Made by a program: the position numbers and the translations under genes. The notes under the pieces were generated by a model that had not been told where the DNA came from, searched no databases, and saw only the letters and a program-made list of their open reading frames with translations. 15,149 nt of DNA, from contig RBNI01003814.1 in assembly GCA_003990745.1 (NCBI GenBank), positions 1-15,149 on the forward strand. The letters run 5' to 3'. How positions within the stretch are numbered: position 1 is the first letter of the stretch; the number at the start of each line of letters is the position of its first letter. The DNA comes from Jimgerdemannia flammicorona. Taxonomy: Eukaryota > Mucoromycota > Endogonomycetes > Endogonales > Endogonaceae. This document shows, piece by piece, positions 1 through 15,149 of the stretch.

Positions 1-22
1 AAAAAAAAAAAAAAAAAAAAAA
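1..22. repeat. Poly-A run at window start
   Basis: There are 22 uninterrupted A residues at the left edge. By analogy with the A tail at 6025-6063, this is most likely the end of the 3' tail of another LINE lying outside the window. A simple homopolymer where the assembly broke is equally possible. Confidence 0.6.
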
Positions 23-129
23 TCAGTATCTATATAAAAAGTATAGATAAATATACCCTAAAGACCCCAGTTTATGTCAACTGCCTTAAGAAATACTTAC
101 TTCTATATAATAGTTCAGAGAATTGACCA
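23..129. other. Short spacer between poly-A run and LINE
   Basis: About 107 bases of AT-rich DNA with no reading frame or motif that I recognise. It is probably the genomic flank into which the LINE inserted, and the target-site copy starts at its end. Confidence 0.4.
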
Positions 130-143
130 GTACCTCTAGACTC
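130..143. repeat. Left target-site duplication of the LINE
   Basis: gtacctctagactc here matches gtacctccagactc directly after the LINE poly-A tail at 6064-6077. The match is 13 of 14 bases, and the single difference is a C/T transition. Position just upstream of the LINE 5' end and just downstream of the A tail is what target-primed reverse transcription produces. Confidence 0.7.
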
Positions 144-185
144 CACCTTTCTCTTGTACAATTCACATTACACTAACTTCAAGTA

Positions 186-2306
186 ATGGTTTTTAATATA
201 ACTCAGAGAAAAGATACTATAAAAATATCATTGAGCAAGAGTTCTGATGGGCATACCAGGTCAGGTGGACCTGGGGCATTCAGCTGGCAGAATGTGGGGA
301 GAGGTTATGGACTGAAGATAGGGGTCTTTAGAGGATTGAAGGATAGAGAGAGATCTGGCAAAGGACCAGTGTCAGGTGGAAGTGGGAGAAGACCTGGTCC
401 CCCTAGCTTTGTAGACAAGGTGAAGGAGAGTGGATGGCTGGTTGGAGCTAGGACTGGTGCTGCTGAGGGGAAGGACAAGACCAGCATCAGTAGGGAGAGT
501 GGTACCCAGGCAAGGGATATAAGTATAGGGGCTGGAGGTGCTGTAGCTGGGGGTTGAACTGCTGATAGGAATGTGATGGGAAATCAGGAAAAAAAAAGAG
601 ATGTGATAGCTGATGGCAAGTTGGGGCAGAGGTTCCCAATGCAGAAGGGGGACTTGGCAGATGGTGTGATGGGGCTGGCAGTGGTACTATTACTCAAGAA
701 ATCAATCTCAGAGTTTGTGGCTACTTTGTACTTCTGGGGCTTAGTAGTAATGGTAAGAATGGTCCTGGGGCTTATCTCAAAGCAAGTGGCTGGAGTTACT
801 TCAGTGAAGTTCCTGAAGGGTCTAGTGGGGGTTGAGGTGGGCTTTGAGGAGGCAGGCCCACTGGATGAGACTCTGAAGACTGGAGTGGTAGTTGGGGAAG
901 TAGTGGTCTCTATGATATACTGTCTTAGGTGAGACCCCAGAGTAGTTCAGCTACTAGTGAAGGGGGTGCCTATAGTAATGGTAGTTGAGATAAGGAGGAG
1001 GGTTGAGAAGATGATAGCAGAGTATGGTGATATAGTTGATATTGGTTTTCAGATATAAGAAGGGACCACTATCAGGACTAGCGATATTGACATCAGGATT
1101 TGGCTGACAGGGAAGGAGGCTACTGGAAAGACAAGTGACTGGCTGATAGTGATGCTATGGGGGGCTTTCATCTGTTGGGTGTCAAGGATAAAAGGGAGTG
1201 AGAAGGAGGAGGAGGAGGATCTATTGAAGGCTTTGGAAGAGATGAGTGGAGCTATTGAGTAGAGAGCAGAGGCCTGGAAGAGATATATGGAGTTGACACA
1301 TTTGAATATTGTGGAAGGTAAACATATCTATATAGACAGGAGGTAGTAGGAAAGGGCTCAGGGGTGTAAGAGACAGAGAGAGCTATTGGCAAGTATGGAA
1401 GAGAGAGTGAAGAAGAATGATAGTGGTATTGAGGAGGCTGGGAGTGCAGAGGTGAGTGTCTGGGCCAGTAAGAGAGGATAAGTGGTAGAGAGGGTTCTGG
1501 AGAAGGCTGGGAAGATGCCACAGGTGGACCCATTTGAGGATGGTACATTTGAAGTCTGGGAACCTGTCATGGAGAATACTCCCCCTCTGATCAGATGAGA
1601 TCCTGTTATTAAGAGCAGGGCAGAGGAGGATGTACTGATGTGTGGTACCAAGTAGGTCTACTTTGAAGTCTCAGATTTGGTGAAAGGGGGACAGATGGTG
1701 GTAGTTAGTGAGGATGAGCTGGTGGATATACCAGAGGAGGGGTGGAATGAGACTGTGAGTGTAGAAGCTGACACCATAATGCTGGATACAGGAAGGCCAG
1801 TGACTCTGAAGAGGAAAGAAGTAGGTAATCTATTATAGATATATCAGATAATAAACAACTTCACAGCTGAAGAATTGGGGGAAGTGAACCTGAGGGTGAT
1901 GAGTGAGGAGTACTGGATGTGGATTCTGTGGGGGGATAGTGTGGTGGAGACACTAAAGGTGGAGGTACTTGCAATTTTCCTGGAGAAGGAGGGGTATGAG
2001 GTGGATAAGGAGAGGGAGGCTGAGCTAGCAGTTGCTGCTAGTGAGCAGGCTGCTTACTGTTAGACAGAGAGGCATAGTTTGCAACTTTGGTAGGAGGCCT
2101 ACCTGGAGTATCATGAGAAATTTGAGGAAAAGGAGGATGGTGAGATGGTGGAACTTCTGGAGAGATTGGAGGCAAAGAAAGCTGAAGAGGAGGGGCTGGC
2201 AGTAGAGCATAACTTGAACTTGGCACAGGAGAGGTGGGATACAGATTTGTAGAGAATAAGTAGGACCTTACTTCTAAACACTATTTCCTATAAACAGTAC
2301 AACTAA
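186..2306 (+). pseudogene. LINE ORF1 (Gag-like), decayed
   Basis: One frame stays coding-like for about 707 codons from the ATG at 186 to a TAA at 2304-2306. About 13 internal stops interrupt it, for example TGA at 555 and 930, a TAG-TAG pair near 1345, TAA near 1480 and TAG at 2061. All are stop codons that single transitions make from Gln, Arg or Trp codons. ORF1 proteins of LINEs bind element RNA and form the ribonucleoprotein. Here the N-terminal ~120 residues are Gly/Ser/Arg-rich and basic. The centre and C-terminus are acidic and Glu-rich, probably helical or coiled coil (about 1200-1300 and 1960-2240). No CCHC zinc knuckle was seen, although many Tad1 ORF1 proteins have them. The true end could also be the TAG near 2250. 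Confidence 0.65.
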
Positions 2307-2970
2307 CATTTTCTTGCTGAATGTAAATGGGTTATGGGAATCTGGATGGTACAAGAATATTTTCACTTGGCTTAAAGGATTGGAGGCTGATCTCTTTTTG
2401 CTGCAGGATGTACATTGTGAAGATGAGAATGACTATGTGAAATAGATTAGAGAATGAGGAGGGGCTATAGCATAGATGGACAAGGTGGCGATTTTGATAT
2501 GAAGTAGTAAAGGGGATTTAGGGGGTATCAGGAGCTGGGGAGACCATTTGGTATGGGGAGAATGGAATTGACCTGGGTGGGAGCCAGTGAAAGTTGGCTC
2601 TTACTACTACCCTATAGCTAGGGGTGAGAGGATTATATAGATTAAGGGGCTTTTGGAGGAGGGTGTGCTCTTGAAGAATGGCATCAATGTGCTGAGAGGT
2701 GACTTTAATATAGTGTGGAATCTGGAGTTGGATAGAACAGTTGGAGAAAGGAGTACAGGTGGAAGGAGTGGTGGGCTGGATGCTTGGGAGGAGGTTGAGA
2801 ACCTTAGCTCTTTAAGAGATGTGGGCCATATGGGGTGGAGTGAAAAGAGAATCTATACACACTAGGTGAATGGCCTTGGGACAAGGATAGATTGGATTCT
2901 GACAGCCAAATACTGGAGTATAGATGTCTAGAGGACTCTAGAGGTGAAGTGGTACCTATGGTCTGATCAC
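2305..2970 (+). other. AP-endonuclease domain of LINE ORF2
   Basis: Three landmarks of the APE-type endonuclease are readable in one frame: L-N-V-N-G near 2317, G-D-F-N at 2698-2709 and S-D-H at 2962-2970, with R-I-D-W-I-L just before the last. The family's Gln-Glu in the L-L-Q-E-T-H motif is Gln-Asp here (Q-D at 2404-2409), so the metal-binding Glu is replaced by Asp. This may be a loss or a lineage variant. Several stops fall inside, for example TAG and TGA between 2440 and 2510. Confidence 0.75.
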
Positions 2971-3699
2971 TGGGACCTGTTGGGGCAGGGGCAGTTTGGG
3001 GGGAGTGGAGGTGGACCTGGACATTAGTACTTTAACTCCTCCCTGCTAGCTGAGAAGGTTTTGTGGGACTTATGGATGGAGGACATATAAGTGAAGATTG
3101 CCAGCTGGATACACAAGGGTTTGCCAGTGGGTGTCCAATGGATGAAGTTGAAAGAGACTGCACAGATTTACTAGGGAGAGGCTGGTAGAGAGGCAGGGAA
3201 GCAGAGAAGGAAAAGAGCAAGATATGCTTCCAATCAGTTGGTTAGACTGCAGATGGAATGGGCAGATTTGTTAAATGCTGGAGTGGTTGATGATTGGAGG
3301 TTAGAGTATGTAAAATTGGAGGTGATAGAGCTGCAACAGGTGCTGAGAGAGGAGGAGGAGATCTGTATGAAAAAGATAGCAGCCAGGCTGAGGTGGCAGA
3401 GACTTGAGGAGGGGGAGAGGCCTTCTAGGTACTTATCATAGCTCCTCCAGGCCAGGAGGGTATAGCATCGATGGGATGGGGTCCTGGATGCAGAGGGGAA
3501 AATGATGCATAGTATGCAACAGATCTTGAAAGTACTGAAGGAGAGGTGGAGGTGTCTGTAGAGTAAGGAGAAAGGGGGTGAGGGTGAGGAGGCCATTGGA
3601 GAAATACTAGAGGAATAAGAACCACTGCAAGTAGAGGGCCTTGGTGACTTGATCCTTTTAGTCCAAGAGGAGGAGATCTAAAGAGTCCTTGCAGTCACT

Positions 3700-4650
3700 A
3701 AGCTTGAGATGGTAACAGGAGAGAATGGGTTACCTTGGGACTTTTGAAAGAAGATGGTAAAGGTTCCTGGAGTTTTAGGAGAGATAGCAGCCCTCTGTAA
3801 TCATGTTCTTCTAAATGGTGAGTGGGTTGGAGAGCAGGACTTGAGATTGGTGGTCCTGTTGTACAAAGATAAGGAGAGGAGAGAGGACTGGAAGAACTGG
3901 AGACTGATCATGCTTCTGGATATAGACAGGAAGATAGTAACCAAGATGATTGTTGTAAGGCTACAGAAGGTTGCCCAACAGGTATTGGGTGAGGAGCAGC
4001 AGAGCTTTGTTGGCAGCAGGCTTATCAGAAATAAGACAGCCTGAGTTCATAGCATTATTGAAGAAGCATGGGCCTGTGGATTGGATGGAAGACTGGTCTT
4101 TCAGAATCAGGAGAAGGTCTATGACCATGTCCAGCAGGTGTGGCTGGGCAAGGTACTGAATAGAATCAGTATTCCTCTATGATTTTGAGTTTCTATATTG
4201 AATCTGTTGGTGGGCAGTAGGGTAGCACTGATGTGTAATGGCCACTGGGGTCTGGCATTCCTCTTGGAAAGAGGATTTTCTCAGAGTGATCCACTGTCTC
4301 CTATCCTTTATACTCTTTCTTTAGAATCTTTAATAGATAGGATATGACAGAAGGTGGTAGAGCTCTCTGTATATAGTGTGGTGTGGAAGGTAGGGGCTTT
4401 TGCAGATGATATGGTAGTTGGACTTAGCTCAGTGGCAGATGTTGAGATACTTAAGGAGATGGTTGAATGGTATGAGGCACACTATAGAGCAAAACTCAAC
4501 TAATATAAGTATGAGATGATGGTGCTGGGGAATAGACTTGTGGGAGGGGACATTATTGAAACAATTGTCTCTATAGGAGAGGCAGTGAGATATTTGGGCA
4601 TCTTCCTTTCAGTATATGGTTCTGTCTTACCATGGTTGTAGTGAGAAAGG
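3700..4650 (+). other. Reverse transcriptase domain of LINE ORF2
   Basis: The palm motifs are readable in one frame. Finger residues L-L-Y-K-D-K-E-R-R-E-D lie near 3860, followed by N-W-R-L-I-M-L-L. Motif A is F-Q-N-Q-E-K-V-Y-D at 4099-4125. Motif B is S-Q-S-D-P-L-S-P near 4279-4302. Motif C is F-A-D-D with both aspartates intact (4405-4410). In motif A the catalytic Asp is Asn (codon AAT at 4105-4107). In motif B the usual R-Q-G-D is S-Q-S-D. A TGA at 4042-4044 and others interrupt the frame. Confidence 0.8.
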
Positions 4651-5457
4651 AGGGTGGCCATCTGGGGGGAGGCTCTACAAGGTTGGAGAGGTCACCACAT
4701 CTCCCTAGCAGACCAGGTTTCAATCCTGAATGTCTACTGGTTCCCTAAGCTGTGGTATGTTATATATCATTTGGACTTTCTAGCTTGGGTGGTGAAGAGA
4801 CTGATGAAGCTGGCTAGAGACTAGATTTGAGCAGAGAGGTGGTCTCAGATAAGTTGGAACACTCTGGCAACACCAGTGGTTTAGAGAGAGCTAGGCCTAG
4901 TGGACTTTTCTAAGAGGCTGCACTGCCTGCAAGCATAGTGATTGAAAAGGGCTGTTGATTTGCAGGAATGGGATTAGGTGCCACTGATGCAGAAGATGTG
5001 GAAGATGAGGTTCTCCCCATGAGGGTTCTCAGGTGATTTGCTCTCTCTGGTGGATCTGGATGGAAGCCAATAGCTAAGATATAAGGGCTTTTGGTGAGAG
5101 GTGGTGGATGGAGCATACTGAATTGGCCTATGCTGGTGAAGCAATGAGGGAGAGATACTGTGGGGCCCAGCTATATAGCAATGAGACAGACTGCTTCTGG
5201 GGGGTATTCTACTTACTGAGTTTGATATTAGTGATGGAGTAGAGTATCAGTGGGGTCTTGGCTAGGACCTTTGGTCAAGTAGTTGGCAGGCAGTAAGGAT
5301 TGATGAGGAGTGGGACTAGGCAGAAGTCTGGTCATAGAGTGCTGAGATGTGGAGGTAGCTTCCTCCTAAGTTCTGGGTAGTATAGTGGCAGATACTATAG
5401 AGGAATATCATATTGAATTTTTGTACTGGGTATCTGGTGGATAGTGGCTGATTAGAT

Positions 5458-5541
5458 TGTGAGGAGTATTATAATGTAGGGCAAGTTGGGGGTTTTGTAC
5501 AGATGCCAGAACATTGGTTGAGAGAGTGTGAGGTTCTGAGG
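5458..5541 (+). other. C-terminal zinc-finger-like region of LINE ORF2
   Basis: LINE ORF2 proteins commonly carry a C-terminal finger of the form C-x2-C...H-x4-C. Here the reading is C-E-E-Y (second Cys replaced by Tyr, codon TAT, one transition from TGT), then H-W-L-R-E-C, an intact H-x4-C. It sits downstream of a P-P-K-F-W stretch, the usual order in this family. This is a degraded finger, moderately sure. Confidence 0.55.
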
Positions 5542-5889
5542 GACTTTTGGATAGTGGTAGATGACTGGCTGGGGGTAGAGAGGAGGCTGGATGAAGAGAG
5601 AGGTTGCTGGGAGGATTTGAGATCTTGGTTAGTAGGTGATATAAGTAATAGTTGGCTCACTATAGAGTGGGTTTTAGCAGTATGAGTAGGGCTGGCTGGA
5701 CATTGGCTCTTTGTTTTTGAAGAGAGGTGATAGATAGGTATACAGAAGAAGTTATTAAGATGAGAGGGGTTGATGGGAGATTTGCTGACTGAGTGGTGGA
5801 TTGGTTGGGGTCTCCAGAGTGGGTAACATCACTATCTAGTAGAAGAGATCTGTGAATGGAGTGATGGGTGGATAGAGATAGTGAATGAT

Positions 5890-6021
5890 AAAGTTATCTT
5901 TCATTATATAAGAGTGGGGAGAGGGGAGAGGGGGGGTCTCTAGGGAGATTGGATAGGGGTGGGAACAGTGTATTTATAGTAGATAAATGGGTGTGTAAAT
6001 AAAGGATAGAGTCCAAGTAAC

Positions 6022-6024
<3 letters not shown>
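5890..6024 (+). promoter_or_regulatory. LINE 3' UTR with AATAAA signal
   Basis: G-rich, non-coding DNA follows the last ORF2-like residues. AATAAA lies at 5998-6003, 22 bases before the A tail begins at 6025, the spacing expected of a polyadenylation signal. The LINE therefore appears to end on its own processed mRNA 3' end. Confidence 0.6.

Positions 6025-6063
<39 letters not shown>
6025..6063 (+). repeat. LINE poly-A tail
   Basis: Thirty-nine uninterrupted A residues form the 3' end of the retroposed RNA copy. A pure A tract has no cytosine on either strand next to A or G, so transition-type mutation of C leaves it largely untouched while the body decays. Confidence 0.85.
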
Positions 6064-6066
<3 letters not shown>

Positions 6067-6077
6067 CCTCCAGACTC
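6064..6077. repeat. Right target-site duplication of the LINE
   Basis: gtacctccagactc is the partner of the copy at 130-143 with one transition. It defines the right edge of the LINE. Confidence 0.7.
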
Positions 6078-6971
6078 TCATTCTCAGCTCTTTCTAAGCT
6101 CTATCTATCTCTTTGTCTCAGTTTTATCAACTTGAAGGAACTCTAATACAATTGATCCAAAAGTACTAAAAAAATCTTATCATTATTCAGAAGTTACTAT
6201 CTGCAGACCTTCTATAATATCAGATAACTATTATAAGAATAACCATATATAGGAAGACTACTTATATATATAACCCACTAAGAAGTCCAAACTGTAAAAA
6301 GACTTTATACTTTATATAAATAAAATATAAGAGCCTTAATATAAGTCTATTTTTACCTGACTAATATCTATTAGATAAATGAGACAATCTTTCAGAGTAT
6401 ACTCTAACAAGTGGACATCCTATTTTCTGAGAAATAGTCTGAAATTAGATAGAGTAATCTAGATATAAAAGAAGATAATAATATAGGTATAGATGCAGAA
6501 GATGTCTATAGATATTGAAATAATAACTAAAGAATAGTCTGAGGACAGTTCTTCTTTTAGTAAAGCTGATATAATATATAAATAATATAATATAACCAAG
6601 TTATTAGTATAGTTACTCTATTATTATAGAAATTATATAAATAACCTAAATAGCTAAAGATAGTAAATATCTACTAAATAGTAAATATCTATCTCCCTTT
6701 CCTTCCTTCTATAAATAGCAATTTATAGTTAGCTATATAGTAATTAAATAGTAATCAATTTGTATAAAATACTTCAGAGATAAGAGTAAATAAACTTTAG
6801 TCCAAAAAGTTCAAAAGTAAAAGTCAAGTCTGCCTACTATACTTTGAGGAAAATACTCACTTTAAAGCTACTACTAGAAGATTGTGAGCTTACTTTCCAC
6901 TATGGTCTACTTTTTAATATAAAGTCTAAGTTTGCTACCAAGTTTGAATAAAGAACTTTACCACTATTTGA

Positions 6972-7250
6972 AGAGAAACTCACTGCTTAAAGAGAAATTC
7001 ACTATCTTACCACAGAGCTAGTCTATTTGATATAACTTTGTAATAAACTCACATTTGTATAAATGAAGTCAGTCTTTAATATAATATTGTTTAAGAAGTC
7101 TACTATTTTTAAGAGAAGTTTGCTGATTTAGGAGAATCTATACTATCTGAGTTATCTGGGTTATTATTTAAGAAGTCTACCAATCTAGGAAAATTTATAT
7201 TATTCAAATTATCTACTAATCTGCTACTTATTAAGAAATATCACCAATTA
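6972..7250 (+). repeat. Dispersed ~18-base degenerate repeat cluster
   Basis: About six copies of a short unit of the form AGAARYYYRCYRRYYTA occur at 6972, 6991, 7095, 7114, 7171 and 7234. Differences between copies are mainly C/T and A/G. Two tandem copies at 6972-6989 and 6991-7009 sit directly side by side. No protein or hairpin function is evident. Confidence 0.5.
7114..7215 (+). repeat. 45-base direct repeat pair differing only by transitions
   Basis: Copy A is 7114-7158 and copy B is 7171-7215. Aligned without gaps they share 32 of 45 positions. All 13 differences are transitions, in both directions. The copies are separated by 12 bases. This is the cleanest record of the mutation process in the window. 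Confidence 0.75.
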
Positions 7251-7266
7251 TCTATATTATACTAGT

Positions 7267-7324
7267 GATCATTATATAGAAATTATATACTTTTAAAAAT
7301 AAGATCATTATATAGAAATTACAT
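7267..7324 (+). repeat. 36-base-period direct repeat
   Basis: gatcattatatagaaatta starts at 7267 and again at 7303, followed by tatac versus catat. The copies differ by one T/C transition over about 22 bases. A short AT-rich direct repeat of unknown role. Confidence 0.6.
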
Positions 7325-7697
7325 ATTATTATATAGTGATTGCTGAGTCTTTCAAATATGTCAAATTCTCTCCAAGGTATATCTCTTAGACTAACTATAA
7401 GTTTGTTATAAACAAGTTCTTATTGGAGTGTCTTCTCAAGGTCTTATAGTTTTCAAACTTCTTATCTTTAAACTGTCTTGTTATCTCTTAGATTGCTTAT
7501 ATAGAATTGAGAGTAAGTAAACTTGACTGACTTTATTTTAGAGGAAATAAAAGGGATATTTATATAAAATATAATTCAATAGTTGCTAAGTTATAAAGCT
7601 AAATATAAATTCTAATAATCAAATAAAATACTGGAATACAGAAAACTATTTGTAAGTACAAGTTTAAGTGTTTGTACAAATAGTTATATAGGTTTAG

Positions 7698-7830
7698 AAT
7701 ACTAGTAGAATTTCAGTAGTATATGAAAAAGATACCAGAAGAATTCTGAGTTACATAAGATCAGAATACCAGAAGAATTATAGTTACACAAAAAATGATA
7801 CTGGTAGAATCTGGTATTACTAAGAACTTA
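7698..7830 (+). repeat. Four-copy ~33-base tandem repeat before the 5' LTR
   Basis: ATAC followed by a conserved AGAAT-containing block recurs at 7699, 7732, 7766 and 7798, a spacing of 33, 34 and 32 bases. Units 2 and 3 share ataccagaagaatt exactly. Units 1 and 4 differ mostly by transitions. A related start may lie near 7628-7640. The array stops about 19 bases before the LTR, so the chromovirus may have inserted at its edge. Confidence 0.6.
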
Positions 7831-7848
7831 AAGCAGAATATTCAGGAC

Positions 7849-8316
7849 TATAATAATTTCATAGTTATATTTAGTCTTAGTACATTTTCATATCTTTTAG
7901 TTAGTCTTTTCTTGTTATTTCTTAGACATTCTACTATGTTCTGTCACCTTCTACTTGCTTAGAAACCTTCTCTCAGTACCTAGATACTACTAGAACATTC
8001 TTATCTTTCCTTGATACTAAGTATCTTATCTTATGTAGCTAGTCATGGAACCTTTTGGAACATTGTAGAATAGTATTAGTCAGCTTTGCTGAGAACCTAT
8101 TTCTTGGCATTTCTCTTTCTTTCCAAGATCCTTCCAGATCTTTCTTTCATATTATGTATAAATATCCTTATTCTCTACTTGAATAAAGCTCAGAATATTT
8201 TCTCCCAGAAATTCTTCAAGAATACTTGAATCTTTAAGTATCTCTTTGAGCTACTTTAGGCTAACTAGAACTTCCATATTTAGCTGCTTTCTCTTAAAGA
8301 AACTAGAACTATTACA
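7849..8316 (+). repeat. 5' LTR of the chromovirus
   Basis: Homologous to 13484-13927 over about 445 bases. It starts tataataa, probably a mutated TGTAATA, and ends ctattaca, so the ends form a short inverted repeat of the canonical TG...CA type. A TATA-like tataaata lies at 8157-8164 and aataaa at 8182-8187. The last 21 bases (8296-8316) have no counterpart in the 3' LTR. About 60 differences from the 3' LTR were counted by eye, with only two or three transversions. Confidence 0.85.
8157..8187 (+). promoter_or_regulatory. TATA-like box and AATAAA in the 5' LTR
   Basis: tataaata at 8157-8164 and aataaa at 8182-8187 are both conserved in the 3' LTR (13788-13795 and 13813-13818), although the surrounding sequence has diverged. 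Their order and 25-base distance suit a U3 promoter close to a polyadenylation signal. Function is inferred from motif and conservation only. Confidence 0.45.
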
Positions 8317-8318
8317 CT

Positions 8319-8330
8319 TGGTAGCAGCAG
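8319..8330 (+). promoter_or_regulatory. Primer-binding site
   Basis: tggtagcagcag starts two bases after the 5' LTR end. TGG is the complement of the tRNA CCA end, and the following bases would pair with a tRNA acceptor stem ending CTGCTACCA. It primes minus-strand DNA synthesis. The exact tRNA cannot be named without the host tRNA set. Confidence 0.65.
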
Positions 8331-8406
8331 TGTCATTATACCTTGCCTTATTAAGAAACCTCACATAAATTTGGAAACCAGTCACAACTAGTCACATAAA
8401 CCCAAA

Positions 8407-9154
8407 ATGAGTCAGTCTACCAGCCAGATCTCTCTGCTATAGAAGAAGTAGGAGGATTGTAGCTCAATATAGAAGATATAATCAATGCCATGGTCCATCA
8501 AATCTAAGAACTTTAAGTATAACTAGAATAGCAGAAAACACAAACTGTGGATACATCATATCCTGCTATAGTACTAGTCAGTTTCAAGTTACTCAAGCCA
8601 GATACCTTTGACAGCCATTGAGGAGGACTATCTATAGATGCATAGATCTTCCAGTTGAACTAATACTTTGAGCTTACAAGAATGAAAGATGATATGCAAG
8701 TTCAATTTGCTACCATACTTCTCTGAGGAAATGCAGCCATCTAGTGGTACAATCATATCATAGTTACATCTATATACTCATATACATGAATCAGAGATTG
8801 GGAAGCTTTCAAGAGAGCCCTTCATAAGCAGTTTAAGCCTGCTAATATCACTAAGCTAGCCAGAGACAAGCTAGTGAACATCAAGCAACTCAAGTCTATA
8901 CAAAGCTACAATGCATAATTTCTGTCAATTCTACTCAAGCTACTAGTAATATCTGAGGATGAAAAGATAGACTGCTATATCCAAGGTCTAAAGGGAAACA
9001 TATAAGTCAAGGTTGAGCTAGAAGAGCCCAAGAACCTTGATGAAGTCATGAGAATTACTGATAGGTTTAATGTTATTACCTTTGCAACTACTTTGAACCA
9101 GAACACCACAAGAAGAACTACTTTGAGAACCACCACAGAAACCAATCAAGGATA
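8407..9154 (+). pseudogene. Chromovirus Gag (capsid part), decayed
   Basis: Gag assembles the virus-like particle. From 8409 the frame is coding-like, with features typical of the fungal Ty3/gypsy retrotransposon gag domain: K-P-D-T-F-D near 8595, Y-F-E-L-T-R-M near 8664, G-N-A-A-I near 8730, F-K-R-A-L near 8810 and E-P-K-N-L-D-E-V-M near 9027. About 15 stops interrupt it, such as TGA near 8619 and TAG near 8742. The only plausible start, ATG at 8407, is in a different frame (M-S-Q-S-T), so a small indel probably lies between it and 8440. A further frame change near 9150 leads into the zinc knuckle. Identification as Gag is secure; the start is not. Confidence 0.75.
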
Positions 9155-9376
9155 GTTGGCCCAGTACCAATAGACTTAGACACTATGAATAAAAAGAACA
9201 CCAAGCTCACCTCTGAAGAAAAGGACCACCTGAAGAAATCTGGAGCCCGTTTCTTCTATTATCAAATAGGACACATTGTAATCAAATGTCCTAAGAAGAC
9301 TAGCGAACCCTCAAGACCAGTCACCATGTTGTCCAAGGATACATCTATCAACCCCACCACTAGTCAACTTGAGCTT
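9155..9376 (+). pseudogene. Nucleocapsid zinc knuckle and linker, decayed
   Basis: In the frame from 9155 the text reads P-I-D-L-D-T-M-N-K-K, then a CCHC-knuckle region at 9245-9289. With C-x2-C-x4-H-x4-C spacing, His (9272) and the last Cys (9287) are intact. The first Cys is Arg (9248) and the second is Tyr (9257, codon TAT, one transition from TGT). The knuckle normally binds genomic RNA, and zinc binding would be lost here. An ATG at 9185 opens a 122-codon stretch, but this is the interior of Gag rather than a separate gene. Confidence 0.65.
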
Positions 9377-9784
9377 AAGATTAAGAAGCTTCATCCAAAG
9401 GCCCAGATCCCTCAATATCAAACAGAAGGAGCCATTGGTCTTGACCTACACTCAGTCAAACAAGTCACTATTCCAGCCAAGGGCCATACTTTGGTGCCTA
9501 CTAGAATTACAGTTCAATGTTCTGAAGGACATTATACTAGAATTGTACTATAATCAGAACTCAGTGTCAAACATCATTTAGATGTAGGTACTGGTATCAT
9601 TGATCCAGACTTTTGAGGATAAGTTCAAGTCTTGCTTGTCAACCAGAAGGATCAAGACTACACAGTTAAAGAAGGAGACTGAGTCACATAAATAATCCTA
9701 GAAAAAGCCAGTCAACTCAAGATTACAGAAGTCCAAGAACTCTCTGAAACTAAATGAGATCAAAAGGATTTTGGTAGCACTGAT
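9377..9784 (+). pseudogene. dUTPase domain in the Gag-Pol junction, decayed
   Basis: dUTPase hydrolyses dUTP to dUMP and limits uracil in newly made DNA. All five trimeric-dUTPase motif regions can be placed in order in one frame over about 135 residues, the normal length. Motif 1 is A-I-G-L-D-L-H-S at 9431-9454. Motif 2 is stop-S-E-L-S-V (9551 onward, where R-S-G-L-A is usual). Motif 3 is G-T-G-I-I-D at 9587-9604. Motif 4 is G-D-stop-V-T near 9674. Motif 5 is D-F-G-S-T-D at 9767-9784. Stops at 9551, near 9614-9622, near 9680 and near 9752 fall on usual Arg or Gln positions. It lies between nucleocapsid and protease. dUTPase-bearing Ty3/gypsy elements have been reported from basidiomycete fungi. 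Inactive here; identification confident. Confidence 0.85.
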
Positions 9785-9807
9785 CAAGCAGCAAGTCTTA
9801 GTGAAAA

Positions 9808-10160
9808 TTGAGCTCAAGCTATGCTTATTTCAAAGACCTAGTCAAAGGAAAAGAAGTTCAAGTACTCATAGACAGCAGAGCTACAGAGAACTTCATCAAT
9901 CAGAATCTCATTGAAAGCCTCAAGATCCTCACCAAGCCTACATCCAAGAATAATAGTATAGTTACTGCAGATAGTACTCTGTACCCCATTGAGTCAATTG
10001 CTGCCAAACTGCCCATCAAGATTCAGAAATATTGGGAATGAGTAGACTTTGAGGTTGTACTACTAGGAGATCATGACCTGATCTTAGGAAAATCCTGGCT
10101 TATGAAACACAACCCAGACATTGATTGGTATAAGAATAAAGTCACCTTACTTCAAGATGG
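9808..10160 (+). pseudogene. Aspartic protease domain of Pol, decayed
   Basis: The frame from 9808 reads V-L-I-D-S-R-A-T-E-N-F-I, the retropepsin active-site loop. The catalytic Asp (9871-9873) is intact and the invariant Gly is Arg (AGA at 9877). The preceding base is C, so this fits CpG to CpA on the sense strand. L-G-D-H-D-L-I-L-G near 10065 matches the second conserved segment, and D-I-D-W follows. The protease would mature the polyprotein. One stop (TGA near 10039) lies inside. It shares its frame with RT and RNase H downstream but not with the dUTPase upstream. Confidence 0.75.
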
Positions 10161-10314
10161 AGCCAATATTACAATCAAGACAGACAAGACTATGAGCAAG
10201 ACCCAGATTGCAATACTGTCAGCTATATAGTACAAGAAAGTACTCAAGAAGGTAATGCATGTCTTTATTATAATGATCTGCCCCAAGAAATAAGACAAGA
10301 GACTATCAGTCAAT

Positions 10315-11100
10315 GAAAGCATCAAGCTACTGCTAGAAGAATTCAAAGATGTCTTCCCAGACAAGCTACCTGGTCTATCACCTACACAAGAAGTTGATCA
10401 TAAAATTAAACTGACCCCAGAAGCTATACTACCTAAAAAATACATATACTACATATTGCCACTCAAAATTGAAGCAGTCAAGAAGAAACTAGAAGAACTA
10501 CTTGCATAAGGAGCCATCCAGTCAAGCAAATCTCCTTATGACTCACTAGTCTTATTCATCAAGAAGAAAGATGATACTCTGTGAATATATATAGACTATC
10601 ATGTACTCAACAAACTCACTATCAAGAACTACTATCTGTTACTCTTAATTAATCAAATCTTTGATGCTCTCAAGAATGCCAAGTACTTCACCAAGTTAAA
10701 CCTCATGTCAGGATACCACCAGATCCAAATCAAACCAGAAGACATTCCCAAGACTACATTCATGACTCCCTTTGGACTCTATGAATTTCTGGTCTTAGTA
10801 TTTGGTCTCACCAATGTACCTGCTATATTCCAGACCCTGATGAACAAGATATTCAAGAACCAACTATTTATTTTCCTATTGGTATATCTTGACAACATCT
10901 TGATCTTTAGTGCAACTAAAGAAGAACACCTCAAACACATTTGAATAGTCCTGAAGATCCTGTGAAAACACAAGCTTTATACTAAGCTAAAGAAGTGTGA
11001 ATTCTTTAAAGAACAAGTCAAATACCTTGGTCACATTATCTCTGCACAATGAATTCAAGTAGACCCATACAAGATAGAAGTAATTAAAGAATGGCCTATT
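10315..11100 (+). pseudogene. Reverse transcriptase domain of Pol, decayed
   Basis: Clear Ty3/gypsy RT in the same frame as the protease. F-P-D-K-L-P-G-L near 10355 and I-K-K-K-D-D near 10559 precede the palm. Motif A is L-N-L-M-S-G-Y-H-Q-I, with the catalytic Asp replaced by Asn (AAC at 10699). F-G-L-T-N-V-P-A-I-F-Q lies near 10801. Motif C is Y-L-D-N-I-L-I-F-S, with the second Asp replaced by Asn (10894-10896). K-K-C-E-F-F and Y-L-G-H-I-I-S follow. Stops include TGA near 10942, 10963 and 11050 and TAA near 10507, at expected Arg, Gln or Gly positions. Two of three catalytic aspartates are gone, so it is dead. Confidence 0.9.
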
Positions 11101-11329
11101 CCATCAAACCTCACAGAACTCCAATCCTTCCTTGGTCTAGCTGGCTATTACTGCTACTTTGTCAGAAACTTCTCTGGTATTGCTGAACCACTAATCAACC
11201 TCATGAGGAAGGCCCTGCACTCAGACTACTATGTACTCTATACCTGAGACCTCTTCTGTCAACAAGCCTTTTAAGAACTCAAGAACTGCCTGACCTATGC
11301 TCTAGTCCTGCATAATGTAGATCAAGGCC

Positions 11330-11700
11330 TAAAATTTACAGTCACTACTGATGTGTTGAATTTTGCCATTAAAGTAGTTCTATTATAAGATGATGGTAAA
11401 GAACATCACCCTATTGCCTTTAAGTCTCATAAGCTGACCCCAGCTGAACAAAAGCTAGCTACTCATGAGAAGAAACTATTGGCAATAATATATATACTAG
11501 ACTACTGGTGATACTATCTAGAAGGTGTTGTGTTTGATATCATTACTGATTATCAATCCTTCAAGTATATCAACACCCAATCTACTCTATCATATCTATA
11601 AGTCAAGTGGAGCCTCAAGCTTCAAACCTTCAATTTGGTGATCATCTATAAGCCTGGCAAGATACTTATAGTACCAGATACCTTATCAAGATACCCAGAC
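11330..11700 (+). pseudogene. RNase H domain of Pol, decayed
   Basis: RNase H removes the RNA strand after cDNA synthesis. The readable core is T-T-D (Asp at 11350), P-I-A-F-K-S near 11413, L-T-P-A-E-Q, H-E-K-K-L-L-A-I (11464 onward) and I-T-D-Y-Q-S (Asp at 11548), ending with Y-K-P-G-K and D-T-L-S-R-Y. The conserved Glu of the K-E-L-L-A motif is Lys (AAA at 11473). Stops at about 11386, 11509 and 11599 sit at expected Gln and Arg positions. Same frame as RT. Confidence 0.8.
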
Positions 11701-11789
11701 CTTACCACAATCATACAAGTCACCTTGGTATCAGAATTCTTAGACCAAATCAGGCAAGCTTACAAAGAAGATACAGTTGTCACTAGAGT

Positions 11790-12950
11790 TTTCTTGAGCT
11801 CAAGGATATATATACTATTGAGAAAACCCTGATCTATCATCAAGATTAAGTCTATCTATCTGAAAACATGAACCTATACTATAAGTATTTGTAAGAACAC
11901 TATAACTCCTCTCTTGCCAGTTATCTGAAAATTGAGAAGACTGTCAAGAACATCTAATACCACTACTATTGACCAAGCATAGTTAAAAAAATCAAGAACT
12001 ATATTGCCAACTATAATCTATACTAGTATAATAAGTCTATCAACCAAGTACTAGCCAGTTTGCTACAACCATTATCAATTTCCACCAAGAAATTTGAGTA
12101 AGTTATTATAGACTTTGTAACTTAACTACTATGAACTCAATCTGGTGCTTATGTTATTATTGTATTTGTCAATCATCTGACAAAGACTATGGTTGCCAAA
12201 CCAATCACTACCAATACTACTGCACTCAAGATTGCAAGAATCTTCTTCAAGTCTATCTTCTGTCACTATGGCCTACCATAAGTAATTGTCAGTGATCATG
12301 ACTCCAAGTTCATCAGTCACTTCTGGCAAACTCTCTTTAAGATCCTGGAAACCCAATTAGTTATGTTTACTATCTTTCACTCACAAACTGATGGACAAAC
12401 TAAGTACATGAACAGAACTCTAGAACAAATGCTAAGAAACTATATTTCTTATGAGTAAGATAATTATGACCACTATCTGACTTATGTAGAGTTTGTATAT
12501 AATAACATCATCCAATCATCTACTGGTCTTTCTCCTTTTTGGTTACTCTATAATTAAGATCCCAAGACCCCTGTAAGTCTACTCTCTTTTAAGAAAAGCA
12601 GTCAAATATAAGTTCTTATTACTAAGAGCCTTATAGACAAAATGGATGAAATACTCAAAATTACCACTATGAATCTTCAGAAGGCTCAATAGTATCAAGT
12701 CAAGTATGCTGATAAGAAATACTATAATATTACTTATACTGTTAGAGATTAAGTCCTACTATCTATCAAAAATCTCAAGATATAATCTCAAGTTAACTAC
12801 TCTTCAAACAAGTTTCAACCTAAGTATATTAGACCTTTTGAGATTACTGAACAAGTCTCTGTATCCTCCTACTATCTCAAGCTATCTGAAACCATGAGAG
12901 TACATCCAGCCTTTCATATGTCACATCTCAAGACCTAGAACCAGTCACTG
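11790..12950 (+). pseudogene. Integrase domain of Pol, decayed
   Basis: Integrase inserts the cDNA into the genome. A frame change near 11790 leads into I-E-K-T-L-I-Y-H-Q-D (11817 onward). In the HHCC finger the first His is intact (11898) but the second His and both Cys are Tyr (11922, 12012, 12021), each one transition away. In the catalytic core D-F-V-T (Asp 12111) and V-S-D (Asp 12294) remain. In Q-T-D-G-Q-T-K-Y the third acidic residue is Lys (AAG at 12402), one transition from Glu, giving D-D-K. R-P-F-E-I near 12830 marks the GPY/F region with Gly changed. About a dozen stops are present. Confidence 0.85.
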
Positions 12951-12989
12951 CTCTACCTTGGTTAAATTCCTAAGCCATCTGTCCTCATG

Positions 12990-13157
12990 ATTATTGAAGA
13001 TCATATTGAGTATAAAGCTGATAAAATTCTTAACAAATGAATTTACTACTGCCATCCTGAATACCTAGTTAAGTAGATGAGTTGCTCTGAATATGATGCT
13101 ACCTGGAAACTACTGGTCAACCTCAAGAACTCTCAAGATCTAGTTCAAGACTTTAAG
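12990..13157 (+). pseudogene. C-terminal chromodomain, decayed
   Basis: Chromodomains on chromovirus integrases bind modified histone H3 and steer insertion toward heterochromatin. In the integrase frame, I-E-D-H-I-E-Y is followed by I-L-N-K, then E-Y-L-V-K-stop (TAG at 13074-13076, where the family has Trp, consistent with TGG to TAG). D-A-T-W-K and N-L-K-N-S-Q-D-L-V-Q-D-F follow, the typical C-terminal helix. One aromatic-cage position is therefore lost to the stop. The domain is recognisable by order and spacing. Confidence 0.75.
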
Positions 13158-13470
13158 GTAAAATATATTACTCAATTCCTACAGTGACTTTCTTAGATTA
13201 TTGATGACCTATGGCAATAATCAGTACCTTATGCATTGGAAGTTTACTTTGAGACTCTGGAATCAGTAGAATATTTAATGAATAAGAAGCCCATAAAAAT
13301 AAAGCTACTAGCTGGGTTTGAATCTCTTCTAGTTGGTTAGTCTAATAATAGATTCTCTGCCATATGAGAATAGCCAATCTCTACTAATACATTGATATAA
13401 GTTTGAGAAATTTTGGTTAAGTATATCTAGTCTTATATTATCTAAGAACTTAATAAGGATATTAGTTCTT
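13158..13470 (+). other. Non-coding tail between Pol and the polypurine tract
   Basis: About 310 bases after the chromodomain. The integrase frame stays partly open (for example P-Y-A-L-E-V-Y-F near 13230), but no known domain or clear start is present. It may be a Pol extension or 3' leader of the element. Confidence 0.4.
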
Positions 13471-13483
13471 AAGAAGAGAGAGA
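13471..13483 (+). promoter_or_regulatory. Polypurine tract
   Basis: aagaagagagaga, an uninterrupted 13-purine run, abuts the 3' LTR start at 13484. It is the usual primer for plus-strand DNA synthesis. Confidence 0.8.
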
Positions 13484-13927
13484 TATAACAATTTTACAAT
13501 TATATTTAACCTTAGTATATTTTTGCATCTTTTAGTTAGTCTTTTCTTATCATTTCTTGAACATTCTACTATATTCTGCCACCTTCTATTTGCTTAGAAA
13601 TCTTCTCTTAATATCTAGATATTACTAGAACATTCTTGTCTTTTCTTGGCACTAAGTATCTTGTCTTAGCTAGTTATAGAACCTTTTGGAACATTATAGA
13701 ACAGTATTAGTCAGCTTTGCTAAAAACTTATTTCTTGGCATTTTTCTTTCTTTTCAAAATTCTTCTAGATCTTTCTTTTAGATTATGTATAAATATTCTT
13801 ATTCTCTACCTGAATAAAACTTAGAATATTTTTCTCTCAAAAATTTTTCAAGAACACTTGAACCTTTAAGTATCTCTCTGAGCTACTTTAGGTCAACTAG
13901 GACTTTCAGATTTAGCTGCTTTCTCTT
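13484..13927 (+). repeat. 3' LTR of the chromovirus, truncated
   Basis: Pairs with 7849-8295. It begins tataacaa, the counterpart of the 5' LTR tataataa, both consistent with an ancestral TG start changed to TA. The TATA-like element (13788-13795) and aataaa (13813-13818) are retained. Relative to the 5' LTR there is a 4-base gap near 13668, and the final 21 bases, including the CTATTACA end, are missing. Unrelated DNA begins at 13928. Confidence 0.85.
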
Positions 13928-14215
13928 TGAATTTCTTCTTACTGACTTCTTGAATATGAGTAACTTCTTTATTAAGTATAATAAATATGTTGAATATTTC
14001 TTAGATAGTTTTGTTATTGAGTTTGTCAAATTCTTCTTAGCTAATATAAGTTTTAGTCTACTTAGTAATAATTTTATTAACTTCTTTAGCTTAGTTCTGA
14101 GAAGTAGTCAGAGTAAAAATATTTTTTAATTATTACTAATAGTATTAGTGATATTGACTAAGTTATCTATATTCATAGTAGACTTCTTAAGAGAAGAATT
14201 ACTTATGAGTGAGAG
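13928..14215 (-). pseudogene. Possible degraded minus-strand coding remnant
   Basis: Read on the minus strand from about 14215 down to 13928, one frame is coding-like: M-N-I-D-N-L-V-N-I-T-N-T near 14176, then after a one-base shift in an A/T run near 14110 T-L-T-T-S-Q-N, E-E-F-D-K-L-N-N-K, and N-K-E-V-T-H-I-Q-E-V-S-K-K-K-F. The four stops are TAA or TAG, which could be former Gln codons. A weaker continuation of the same frame may reach about 14540. It abuts the truncated LTR and differs in strand from both elements. The protein family is not recognised. It could be a third, older transposon or chance in AT-rich DNA. Confidence 0.35.
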
Positions 14216-15129
14216 AAATTTTCTACTATTATCAAATTATAATAAAACTATATACTGATAGAATTAATATATTATAAATAATCAAGATAATTATCAGCTC
14301 TAAGTTCTAAATTCTTATAAAGAAGTACTAAGTTCCAATTATCTATTATAGTAGTATAGTCTAAGTATACTTTCAGGTTTTTATACTAGTGAGAGTATTG
14401 TACTTATATCTTAAGTTAATCAGACTCAGAATCATTAATAAGTTAGATCTGAGAGTTCTGATAAGAATATAGCTTTATTCTTATATTTAGAGAAAACAGA
14501 GCTGAGGTTATAATATACTCAGTACAGATATTTATATAGATTTGAGACTATAACTAAATATAATATATTAAATATATTTATATATAGTTATACTATATAG
14601 TATTTATGACTACTTATTGAAAATTTTATTAGAATTTCTATTGAAAATTCCAGTAGCTATTAGTATATAATAAACTATTACAATAATATTATATTTAAGA
14701 CTAACTAGTACTTTATTTCTTTTACTTAACTACTAATAGTAATATCTAGAATAAATAGATAAAGATAAACTTTTATATATTTGTATATTTTTTATCTATT
14801 TTATTTTTATTTTTATTTTTTATAAAATATAGAATTTTGATCATCTTACTACTGAGAATAATCATATTGATGATAAATCTTTATGTAAATTTTCTATTAT
14901 AGTATTATTATATTAAGTTATATAAAGAATGAGTTGTTTTATATAAATAAATATCAAATAAAAAAATATAAAGTTATAACTAAGATTAAAACTTACAGCA
15001 AGTTACTATTAGCTTATCAAAATACTTCTATACTTAAGTCAGAAGAATCTTTATAAACTATTCACAATCAATAAGTCAAAGATCTTAGAATATGATTACC
15101 ACAATATATATTTTTTTAGTAATAAGTAG
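14216..15129. other. AT-rich decayed tail region
   Basis: About 0.9 kb of very AT-rich DNA with short T runs and TATA-like strings and no clear gene. A faint minus-strand frame between 14300 and 14540 shows many stops. I see no tRNA, LTR or domain in it. Confidence 0.4.
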
Positions 15130-15149
15130 TTTTTTTTTTTTTTTTTTTT
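15130..15149. repeat. Poly-T run at window end
   Basis: Twenty uninterrupted T residues at the right edge. It may be the A tail of a LINE inserted on the minus strand, or a homopolymer where the assembly stopped. Confidence 0.55.

What the first reader, a model, noticed from the sequence alone, without database searches (positions are those of the whole stretch)
9377..9784. dUTPase domain between nucleocapsid and protease of a chromovirus
All five dUTPase motif regions are readable in order in one frame, ending in D-F-G-S-T-D, in an element that also carries a chromodomain. dUTPases are known in some retroviruses and have been reported in a few fungal Ty3/gypsy elements, but this arrangement is uncommon. 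A dUTPase limits uracil in cDNA, which is notable in a genome where C-to-T change dominates. Any functional link to that decay is speculation.
Basis: partly seen in the sequence, partly recalled or inferred. Interest (0 to 1): 0.75.

Follow-up and report, generated by a model that had tools for sequence, protein, structure and literature searches.

The report
dUTPase inside a fungal retrotransposon
A dead jumping gene in a fungal genome carries its own copy of a DNA-hygiene enzyme, dUTPase, wedged between its nucleic-acid-binding protein and its protease; the same arrangement is kept in younger copies, so it looks like a working part of this element family, of a kind already known from a few other fungi and from some retroviruses.

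Summary
Window 9377-9784 encodes a decayed trimeric-type dUTPase (PF00692, 95.3 bits; 141.5 bits against a home-made dUTPase profile versus at most 6.9 in 1000 codon shuffles). It lies between a decayed CCHC knuckle and the protease of a Ty3/gypsy chromovirus with 87%-identical LTRs. It is not a late insertion: two further families in the genome (A, B) carry it in the same place, in one frame with NC, PR and RT in the copies read, and 42 of 65 A-like and 54 of 85 window-like RT matches have it about 1.1-1.2 kb upstream in what I could check. Most motif residues are kept in sampled A and B copies, with exceptions, and shared amino-acid changes are as rare in the B dUTPase as in its RT. The window copy is dead. 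Best reading: an element-encoded NC-dUTPase that keeps uracil out of cDNA, as in betaretroviruses; activity is inferred. A link to C-to-T decay is not supported: changes are most frequent at CpG, without G-to-A excess. dUTPases in fungal chromoviruses are published (PMC2864245), so this is a new member of a known kind.

The parts
7849..8316 (+). 5' LTR (TA in place of TG at the start; ends ACTATTACA)
   Evidence: Direct repeat with 13484-13927; ends set by comparison with family A LTRs TGTAA...TTACA
8318..8330 (+). primer-binding-site-like TTGGTAGCAGCAG just inside the 5' LTR
   Evidence: Same place and similar letters in three family A copies; the tRNA was not identified
8577..9071 (+). capsid region of Gag, broken frame 0 (limits approximate)
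   Evidence: PF19259 44.9 bits and PF03732 44.8 bits with X at stops; 53% to family A over 8577-8915
9155..9301 (+). nucleocapsid region with decayed CCHC knuckle
   Evidence: 66% to a family A NC, whose knuckle is intact
9377..9784 (+). dUTPase domain, five motifs, broken by stops
   Evidence: PF00692 95.3 bits; controls; motif table
9829..10167 (+). aspartic protease
   Evidence: RVP_2 46 bits; 72% to family A
10489..10953 (+). reverse transcriptase
   Evidence: RVT_1 71.1 bits; 73% to family A
11257..11550 (+). RNase H region (limits approximate)
   Evidence: RT_RNaseH_2 84.4 and RT_RNaseH 69.3 bits, placed with the frame listing
12102..12449 (+). integrase core
   Evidence: rve 24.9 bits, under the 32.6 cut-off; matching stretch in younger copies
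12753..13133 (+). integrase C-terminal SH3 and chromodomain
   Evidence: SH3_Tf2-1 47 bits, Chromo 22.5 bits, under the 25.1 cut-off; the same region of L010 scores Chromo 60.3 bits
13471..13483 (+). polypurine tract AAGAAGAGAGAGA
   Evidence: Directly before the 3' LTR; AAGGAGGGGGAGA at the same place in family A copies
13484..13927 (+). 3' LTR, lacking about the last 21 bases
   Evidence: 387 of 443 aligned bases identical to 7849-8295; end by comparison

Best explanation
The stretch is the dUTPase domain of the Gag-Pol polyprotein of a Ty3/gypsy chromovirus, here in an old, dead copy. In functional copies it would be made as part of one capsid-NC-dUTPase-protease-RT polyprotein, packaged in the particle, form a homotrimer, and hydrolyse dUTP to dUMP next to the reverse transcriptase, so that less uracil enters the cDNA. 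Shown: the domain, its place, its presence in three families of the genome, a mostly intact active site in sampled copies and a selection signal. Inferred: activity, trimer, packaging, processing and benefit.
For: Profile match and controls. 58 of the 150 dUTPase matches listed in the genome have no stop (my count). One frame, apart from scattered stops, runs from capsid into RT in the family A copies L003 and L005 and through PR in L008; L018 is open for 693 aa from before NC into RT; in family B copy L017 the NC, dUTPase, PR and RT matches share a frame. LTRs of three A copies are 94.7, 95.6 and 96.8% identical, against 87.4% in the window. Motif 1 D is kept in 46 of 47 and motif 3 D in 46 of 47 sampled A and B copies. 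Among variants carried by more than a fifth of copies, nonsynonymous over synonymous rates per site are 0.07 for B dUTPase (5 non, 23 syn) and 0.07 for B RT (7, 29), and 0.19 for A dUTPase (9, 15) against 0.09 RT, 0.26 PR, 0.25 gag. P0244, an unbroken metagenome protein, groups with the window dUTPase (98/89) and resembles its flanks; its AlphaFold model (pLDDT 88.2) fits solved dUTPases, best E 8.8e-16. One A and one B dUTPase pass the curated TIGR00576 cut-off (145.5 and 121.3 against 102.55). In betaretroviruses an NC-dUTPase fusion found in virions is established, with activity shown for MMTV p30 (PMC4531489 section 8).
Against: No activity, expression or particle data. The copies were picked by dUTPase score and mostly for lack of stops in it, which biases the dUTPase selection counts downwards, though RT was not picked that way; for singleton variants the A dUTPase ratio (0.50) is higher than that of RT (0.26) and PR (0.41). 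In family B motif 4 D and R are F and C in 29 of 29, the last T of motif 5 is S in 29 of 29, and motif 3 R is H or C in 11 of 29; in family A motif 5 R is Q in 5 of 18. Family A and the window have F where 14 of 16 database proteins filed as cellular, and 4 of 4 PDB chains, have the motif 3 Y. In 4 of 10 RT copies checked by fetching, no dUTPase match was found at the expected place: two 501-base pieces resemble other repeats, one shows what looks like the dUTPase end (match E 0.082 and my reading) next to a family A LTR, and one matched nothing held. 27 window-like and 23 A-like RT matches were not checked.
Confidence: 0.85

Rival explanations
1. The dUTPase is retained by the element for a role other than dUTP hydrolysis, such as trimerising the NC-containing product or binding partners, the enzyme activity being weak or lost.
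For: Family B departs at motifs 3, 4 and 5 yet shows few shared amino-acid changes; the title of a cited M-PMV paper reports low catalytic efficiency of the NC-dUTPase fusion (reference-list passage).
Against: Most motif residues stand in family A and in P0244, and one A and one B domain pass a curated dUTP diphosphatase cut-off.
Confidence: 0.1
2. A host dUTPase gene or pseudogene was inserted secondarily into this one copy, so the domain is not part of the element.
For: None found beyond the general likeness to cellular dUTPases.
Against: 149 further listed copies of the window's dUTPase at 76% or more identity; 54 of 85 window-like RT matches with it upstream; same place in families A and B.
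Confidence: 0.02
3. The resemblance is a chance reading across a decayed coding region.
For: The frame is broken by stops.
Against: E 3.2e-27; 141.5 bits against at most 6.9 in 1000 codon shuffles.
Confidence: 0.001

Closest known systems
dUTPase-containing fungal Ty3/gypsy chromoviruses: PosPlaTy3-3, -4, -5 (Postia placenta), and elements of Phanerochaete chrysosporium and Tuber melanosporum (Tmt1) that it cites (PMC2864245, passages)
   Same: LTR retrotransposons of fungi, chromodomain elements among them, with a dUTPase in the polyprotein; PosPlaTy3-3 has it at the amino terminus of Pol, which is probably the same place.
   Different: Probably another host lineage; PosPlaTy3-4 and -5 have it at the C terminus of Pol and between PR and RT. 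I did not compare sequences with any of them.
Betaretroviral NC-dUTPase (MMTV p30, M-PMV) (PMC4531489, section 8 and passages)
   Same: dUTPase between NC and PR, joined to NC.
   Different: Betaretroviruses reach it by a frameshift; the family A and B copies read have it in one frame. The family A domain is closer in sequence to cellular dUTPases than to lentiviral ones (129.6 bits against 59.0 for FIV 1f7d and 49.4 for 1duc); no betaretroviral chain was among the 60 of 78 sequences shown, so that comparison is missing.
Unnamed public polyproteins P0021, P0023, P0025
   Same: Capsid, then dUTPase, then PR and RT where the piece reaches that far, with a CCHC knuckle matched by Pfam in P0021 and P0023; P0021 and P0025 share a supported dUTPase clade with family A and the window (97/91; P0023 was not in the tree).
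   Different: 38-45% identity over the searched region; origin unnamed.
Rotifer Juno, Vesta and TelKA retrotransposons (PMC5408684, passages)
   Same: LTR retrotransposons with a dUTPase.
   Different: dUTPase lies between PR and RT and there is no chromodomain.

Membership tests
Trimeric dUTPase (PF00692) | Profile match over the full domain | tested here: met
   Window 95.3 bits over profile 2-128 of 129; one family B and one A copy 122.9 and 122.7
Trimeric dUTPase (PF00692) | Five motifs with catalytic residues | tested here: inconclusive
   Family A largely complete but F for Y in 18 of 18 and motif 5 Q for R in 5 of 18; B departs at motif 4, in part at motif 3 R, and at the last T of motif 5; window broken at four motif positions
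Trimeric dUTPase (PF00692) | dUTPase fold | tested here: met
   Model of the relative P0244, not of the window copy: best PDB match E 8.8e-16, TM 0.93 by target length
Trimeric dUTPase (PF00692) | Hydrolysis of dUTP, homotrimer | not testable with these tools
   Needs purified protein
Ty3/gypsy chromovirus | LTRs, PBS, PPT, gag and PR-RT-RH-IN order | tested here: met
   the tRNA for the PBS was not identified
Ty3/gypsy chromovirus | Chromodomain at the C terminus of IN | tested here: met
   60.3 and 61.9 bits in one A and one B copy; 22.5 bits, under the 25.1 cut-off, in the window
Ty3/gypsy chromovirus | Short target-site duplication | tested here: inconclusive
   TCCTC on both sides of the family A copy L018 (my reading); not seen at the window element, whose 3' LTR end is lost
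Betaretroviral NC-dUTPase | dUTPase between NC and PR | tested here: met
Betaretroviral NC-dUTPase | Frameshift between gag and the dUTPase | tested here: not met
   One frame through NC, dUTPase, PR and RT in the A and B copies read; the window's own frame jumps are read as small indels, an inference

The most novel reading that the evidence does not exclude
Within one fungal genome two chromovirus lineages (the window's family with A, and B) independently captured unrelated dUTPases at the same spot between nucleocapsid and protease, arriving separately at the betaretroviral NC-dUTPase design and keeping it under selection like that on reverse transcriptase.
Probability: 0.3. Interest if true: 0.55.

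Novelty: new member of a known kind. Interest (0 to 1): 0.4.

Why it matters
It shows a dUTPase at the NC-PR junction as a lasting, apparently selected part of high-copy chromoviruses in a fungus probably outside the groups where it was published, and public polyproteins carry it in at least three positions. That makes these elements a natural series for asking why retroelements repeatedly hold a dUTPase and whether its place in the polyprotein sets its dose. It also warns that some database entries named 'dUTP pyrophosphatase' from metagenomes are retroelement pieces (P0243, P0244).

Tried and rejected
Link between the dUTPase and C-to-T decay: tested by context and strand in 17 A and 28 B copies over about 1 kb; the rate is highest at CpG (0.28 per site per copy in A, 0.20 in B), then CpA, CpC, CpT, and outside CpG C-to-T exceeds G-to-A (0.055 and 0.039 in A, 0.057 and 0.034 in B), so no cDNA-uracil signature was seen.

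Programmed frameshift: the window's frame jumps 0-2-1-0 suggested two -1 shifts; dropped when the A and B copies read proved to be in one frame.

Host dUTPase gene: not found. The 150 listed matches to a dUTPase stretch of PDB 3so2 were taken for element copies by their coordinates and open frames, not one by one, and a strict DYRG-type DNA pattern found nothing. I first took 3so2 for a fungal enzyme from memory; one search names it Chlorella dUTPase.

Host as Blumeria or Tuber: considered from genome size and Tmt1, dropped after the RPB2 search.

Origin of the dUTPase: the tree puts window, A and the P0021 group together (97/91) and B apart, but the AU test does not reject B joining them (p 0.29) nor one clade of all the Ty3 dUTPases in the set (p 0.073). 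One or several captures is open. The RT backbone is unresolved too.

Script failures: one search stopped after the family A rows; one search failed on a missing file; one search replaced it (its PR row for family B is empty because the reference stretch held a stop).

Full report
What is there. The frame 9152-9812 reads through five dUTPase motif regions between a decayed CCHC knuckle and an aspartic protease. PF00692 matches at 95.3 bits with X at stops. Against a profile of 20 dUTPases that I filed as cellular, 9377-9784 scores 141.5 bits; of 1000 codon shuffles 850 were reported at any score and the best had 6.9; of 438 six-frame tiles the three among the 12 best rows printed overlap the stretch. 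The copy is dead: six stops in the stretch, four at motif positions, and the frame changes between capsid, dUTPase, protease and integrase.

The element. Ends taken from three family A copies put the 5' LTR at 7849-8316 and the 3' LTR at 13484-13927, the latter without its last 21 or so bases. Over the part present in both, 387 of 443 aligned bases agree (87.4%) and 54 of 56 differences are transitions. A family A copy, L018, has a TCCTC duplication on both sides, by my reading. Domain order is capsid, NC, dUTPase, PR, RT, RNase H, IN, SH3, chromodomain.

Copies in the genome. The window lies in a 134.8 Mb assembly. Searches list at most 150 matches. PF00692 gives 150, all above the cut-off, 58 without a stop by my count. 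The window's dUTPase gives 150 matches at 76% identity or more, itself included, each with at least one stop; its RT gives 150 at 73% or more. I fetched 40 of the 58 stop-free copies besides the 8 loci, of which 5 are stop-free and one is a place fetched again. They fall in two families: A (19 loci, two of them one place; RT of A-like copies about 73-78% to the window) and B (29 loci; dUTPase about 36-41% to A). In both the dUTPase lies between NC and PR where those are matched; in B the PR match begins about 200 bases after the dUTPase, in A about 25. Of 85 RT matches at 79% or more, 47 have a dUTPase match within 3 kb upstream in the lists used (150 and 71 of the 150), one more appears, and 6 of 10 others fetched have it: 54 of 85. 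Of the 4 fetched without a match, one 501-base piece resembles the window's LINE, one another repeat, one shows what looks like the dUTPase end beside a family A LTR, and one matched nothing held. Of 65 RT matches below 79%, 19 plus 23 have it: 42 of 65. Unchecked: 27 and 23. Nearly all spacings are 1.09-1.22 kb, with outliers at 1.5 and 1.9 kb.

Selection and active site. Variants carried by more than a fifth of copies give rate ratios (nonsynonymous over synonymous, per site) for family B of 0.07 dUTPase (n 29), 0.07 RT (n 23 of 25), 0.22 NC (n 25 of 28), 0.48 gag (n 17 of 27) and for family A of 0.19 dUTPase (n 17), 0.09 RT (n 7), 0.26 PR (n 16), 0.20 NC (n 18), 0.25 gag (n 10); copies without a full ungapped match were dropped. 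For singletons the ratios are 0.28 dUTPase and 0.25 RT in B, and 0.50 dUTPase, 0.26 RT, 0.41 PR in A. Counts are small (A dUTPase 9 against 15) and most copies were chosen for a clean dUTPase. Motif residues are: motif 1 D and motif 3 D each in 46 of 47 copies; motif 3 R in 36 of 47 (11 of 29 B copies have H or C); motif 5 R in 41 of 47. B has F and C for motif 4 D and R in 29 of 29. The window and all 18 A copies have F for the motif 3 Y; P0244, nearest to the window in the tree, has Y.

Relatives. Of 120 proteins listed, 83 carry a retroelement Pfam domain beside PF00692 by my count of the printed column. Ten were scanned: dUTPase between capsid and PR in P0021 and P0025, after capsid and CCHC in P0023; between PR and RT in P0029, P0030 and P0054; after PR in P0067 and P0117, which end before RT; between RNase H and IN, with a chromodomain, in P0083; before PR in P0087, which begins near the dUTPase. 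The dUTPase tree of 50 rows joins window, A and the P0021 group (97/91), and the eight rows with the dUTPase after PR (97/86); B is a long branch elsewhere. A single origin is not rejected. The model of P0244 has pLDDT 88.2 and fits dUTPases, first a shrimp enzyme, E 8.8e-16.

Host. An RPB2 piece (L052) has as named hit of highest identity Dentiscutata heterogama, 91% over 76% of the query; an unnamed metagenome protein has 97% over 76%. By E-value the first named hit is Rhodotorula glutinis, 84% over 94%, and another named protein, of Racocetra persica, has only 74% over 94%. Proteins longer than 1.75 times the query were not candidates, so full-length RPB2s are missing.

Mechanism. Inferred from the anatomy: one Gag-Pol product, dUTPase cut out or left joined to NC, working in the particle to lower dUTP during reverse transcription. 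In betaretroviruses the dUTPase is an NC fusion found in virions, and dUTPase-deficient non-primate lentiviruses are reported to need it in non-dividing cells and to gain G-to-A changes without it (PMC4531489, section 8 and passages). Decay here does not show that signature.

Literature. Searches cover open-licence papers only. PMC2864245 reports dUTPases in elements of Postia, citing Phanerochaete and Tuber, at varying places, and suggests independent gains (passages). PMC11105155 notes PF00692 enriched with retroviral families in Entomophthora muscae (passage). For dUTPase with Rhizophagus or Glomeromycota I saw listings only: besides PMC2864245, two papers whose titles concern other subjects and which I did not open. 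PMC8647823 and PMC11075540 on Rhizophagus transposons have no word beginning 'dUTP' in the main text. The original Tmt1 and Phanerochaete papers I have not seen.

Noticed in passing
1-15149: Only 5 CpG dinucleotides in 15,149 bases (observed/expected 0.01), 2 in the element, 3 in the LINE, none in the flanks, against 1.10 in a 678-base RPB2 piece of the same genome and 0.23-0.43 in three younger element copies: near-total, apparently repeat-linked CpG loss.
   Followed up: partly
1-6064: A decayed LINE-type retrotransposon with poly-A end; an X-at-stop piece matches RVT_1 at 55.8 bits. Its coding strand is strongly G-rich, GC skew 0.24-0.69 in 500-base windows.
   Followed up: partly
13928-15149: Very AT-rich flank, down to 16% GC, with an inverted repeat at 14238-14276 and 14559-14597.
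   Followed up: no
7810-7848 and 13431-13483: The bases just before the 5' LTR resemble those just before the 3' LTR, as if another copy's internal end lay upstream; no longer match was found.
   Followed up: partly
P0115: A protein listed with PF00692 and PF07727, which I recall as the Ty1/copia RT family: a dUTPase in a copia element?
   Followed up: no
G000:C4112:2941-3105 and C1512:5428-5619: Only two short cytosine methylase matches, 25.2 and 24.6 bits against a cut-off of 22: odd if CpG loss is due to methylation; a six-frame search without introns may miss the gene.
   Followed up: no
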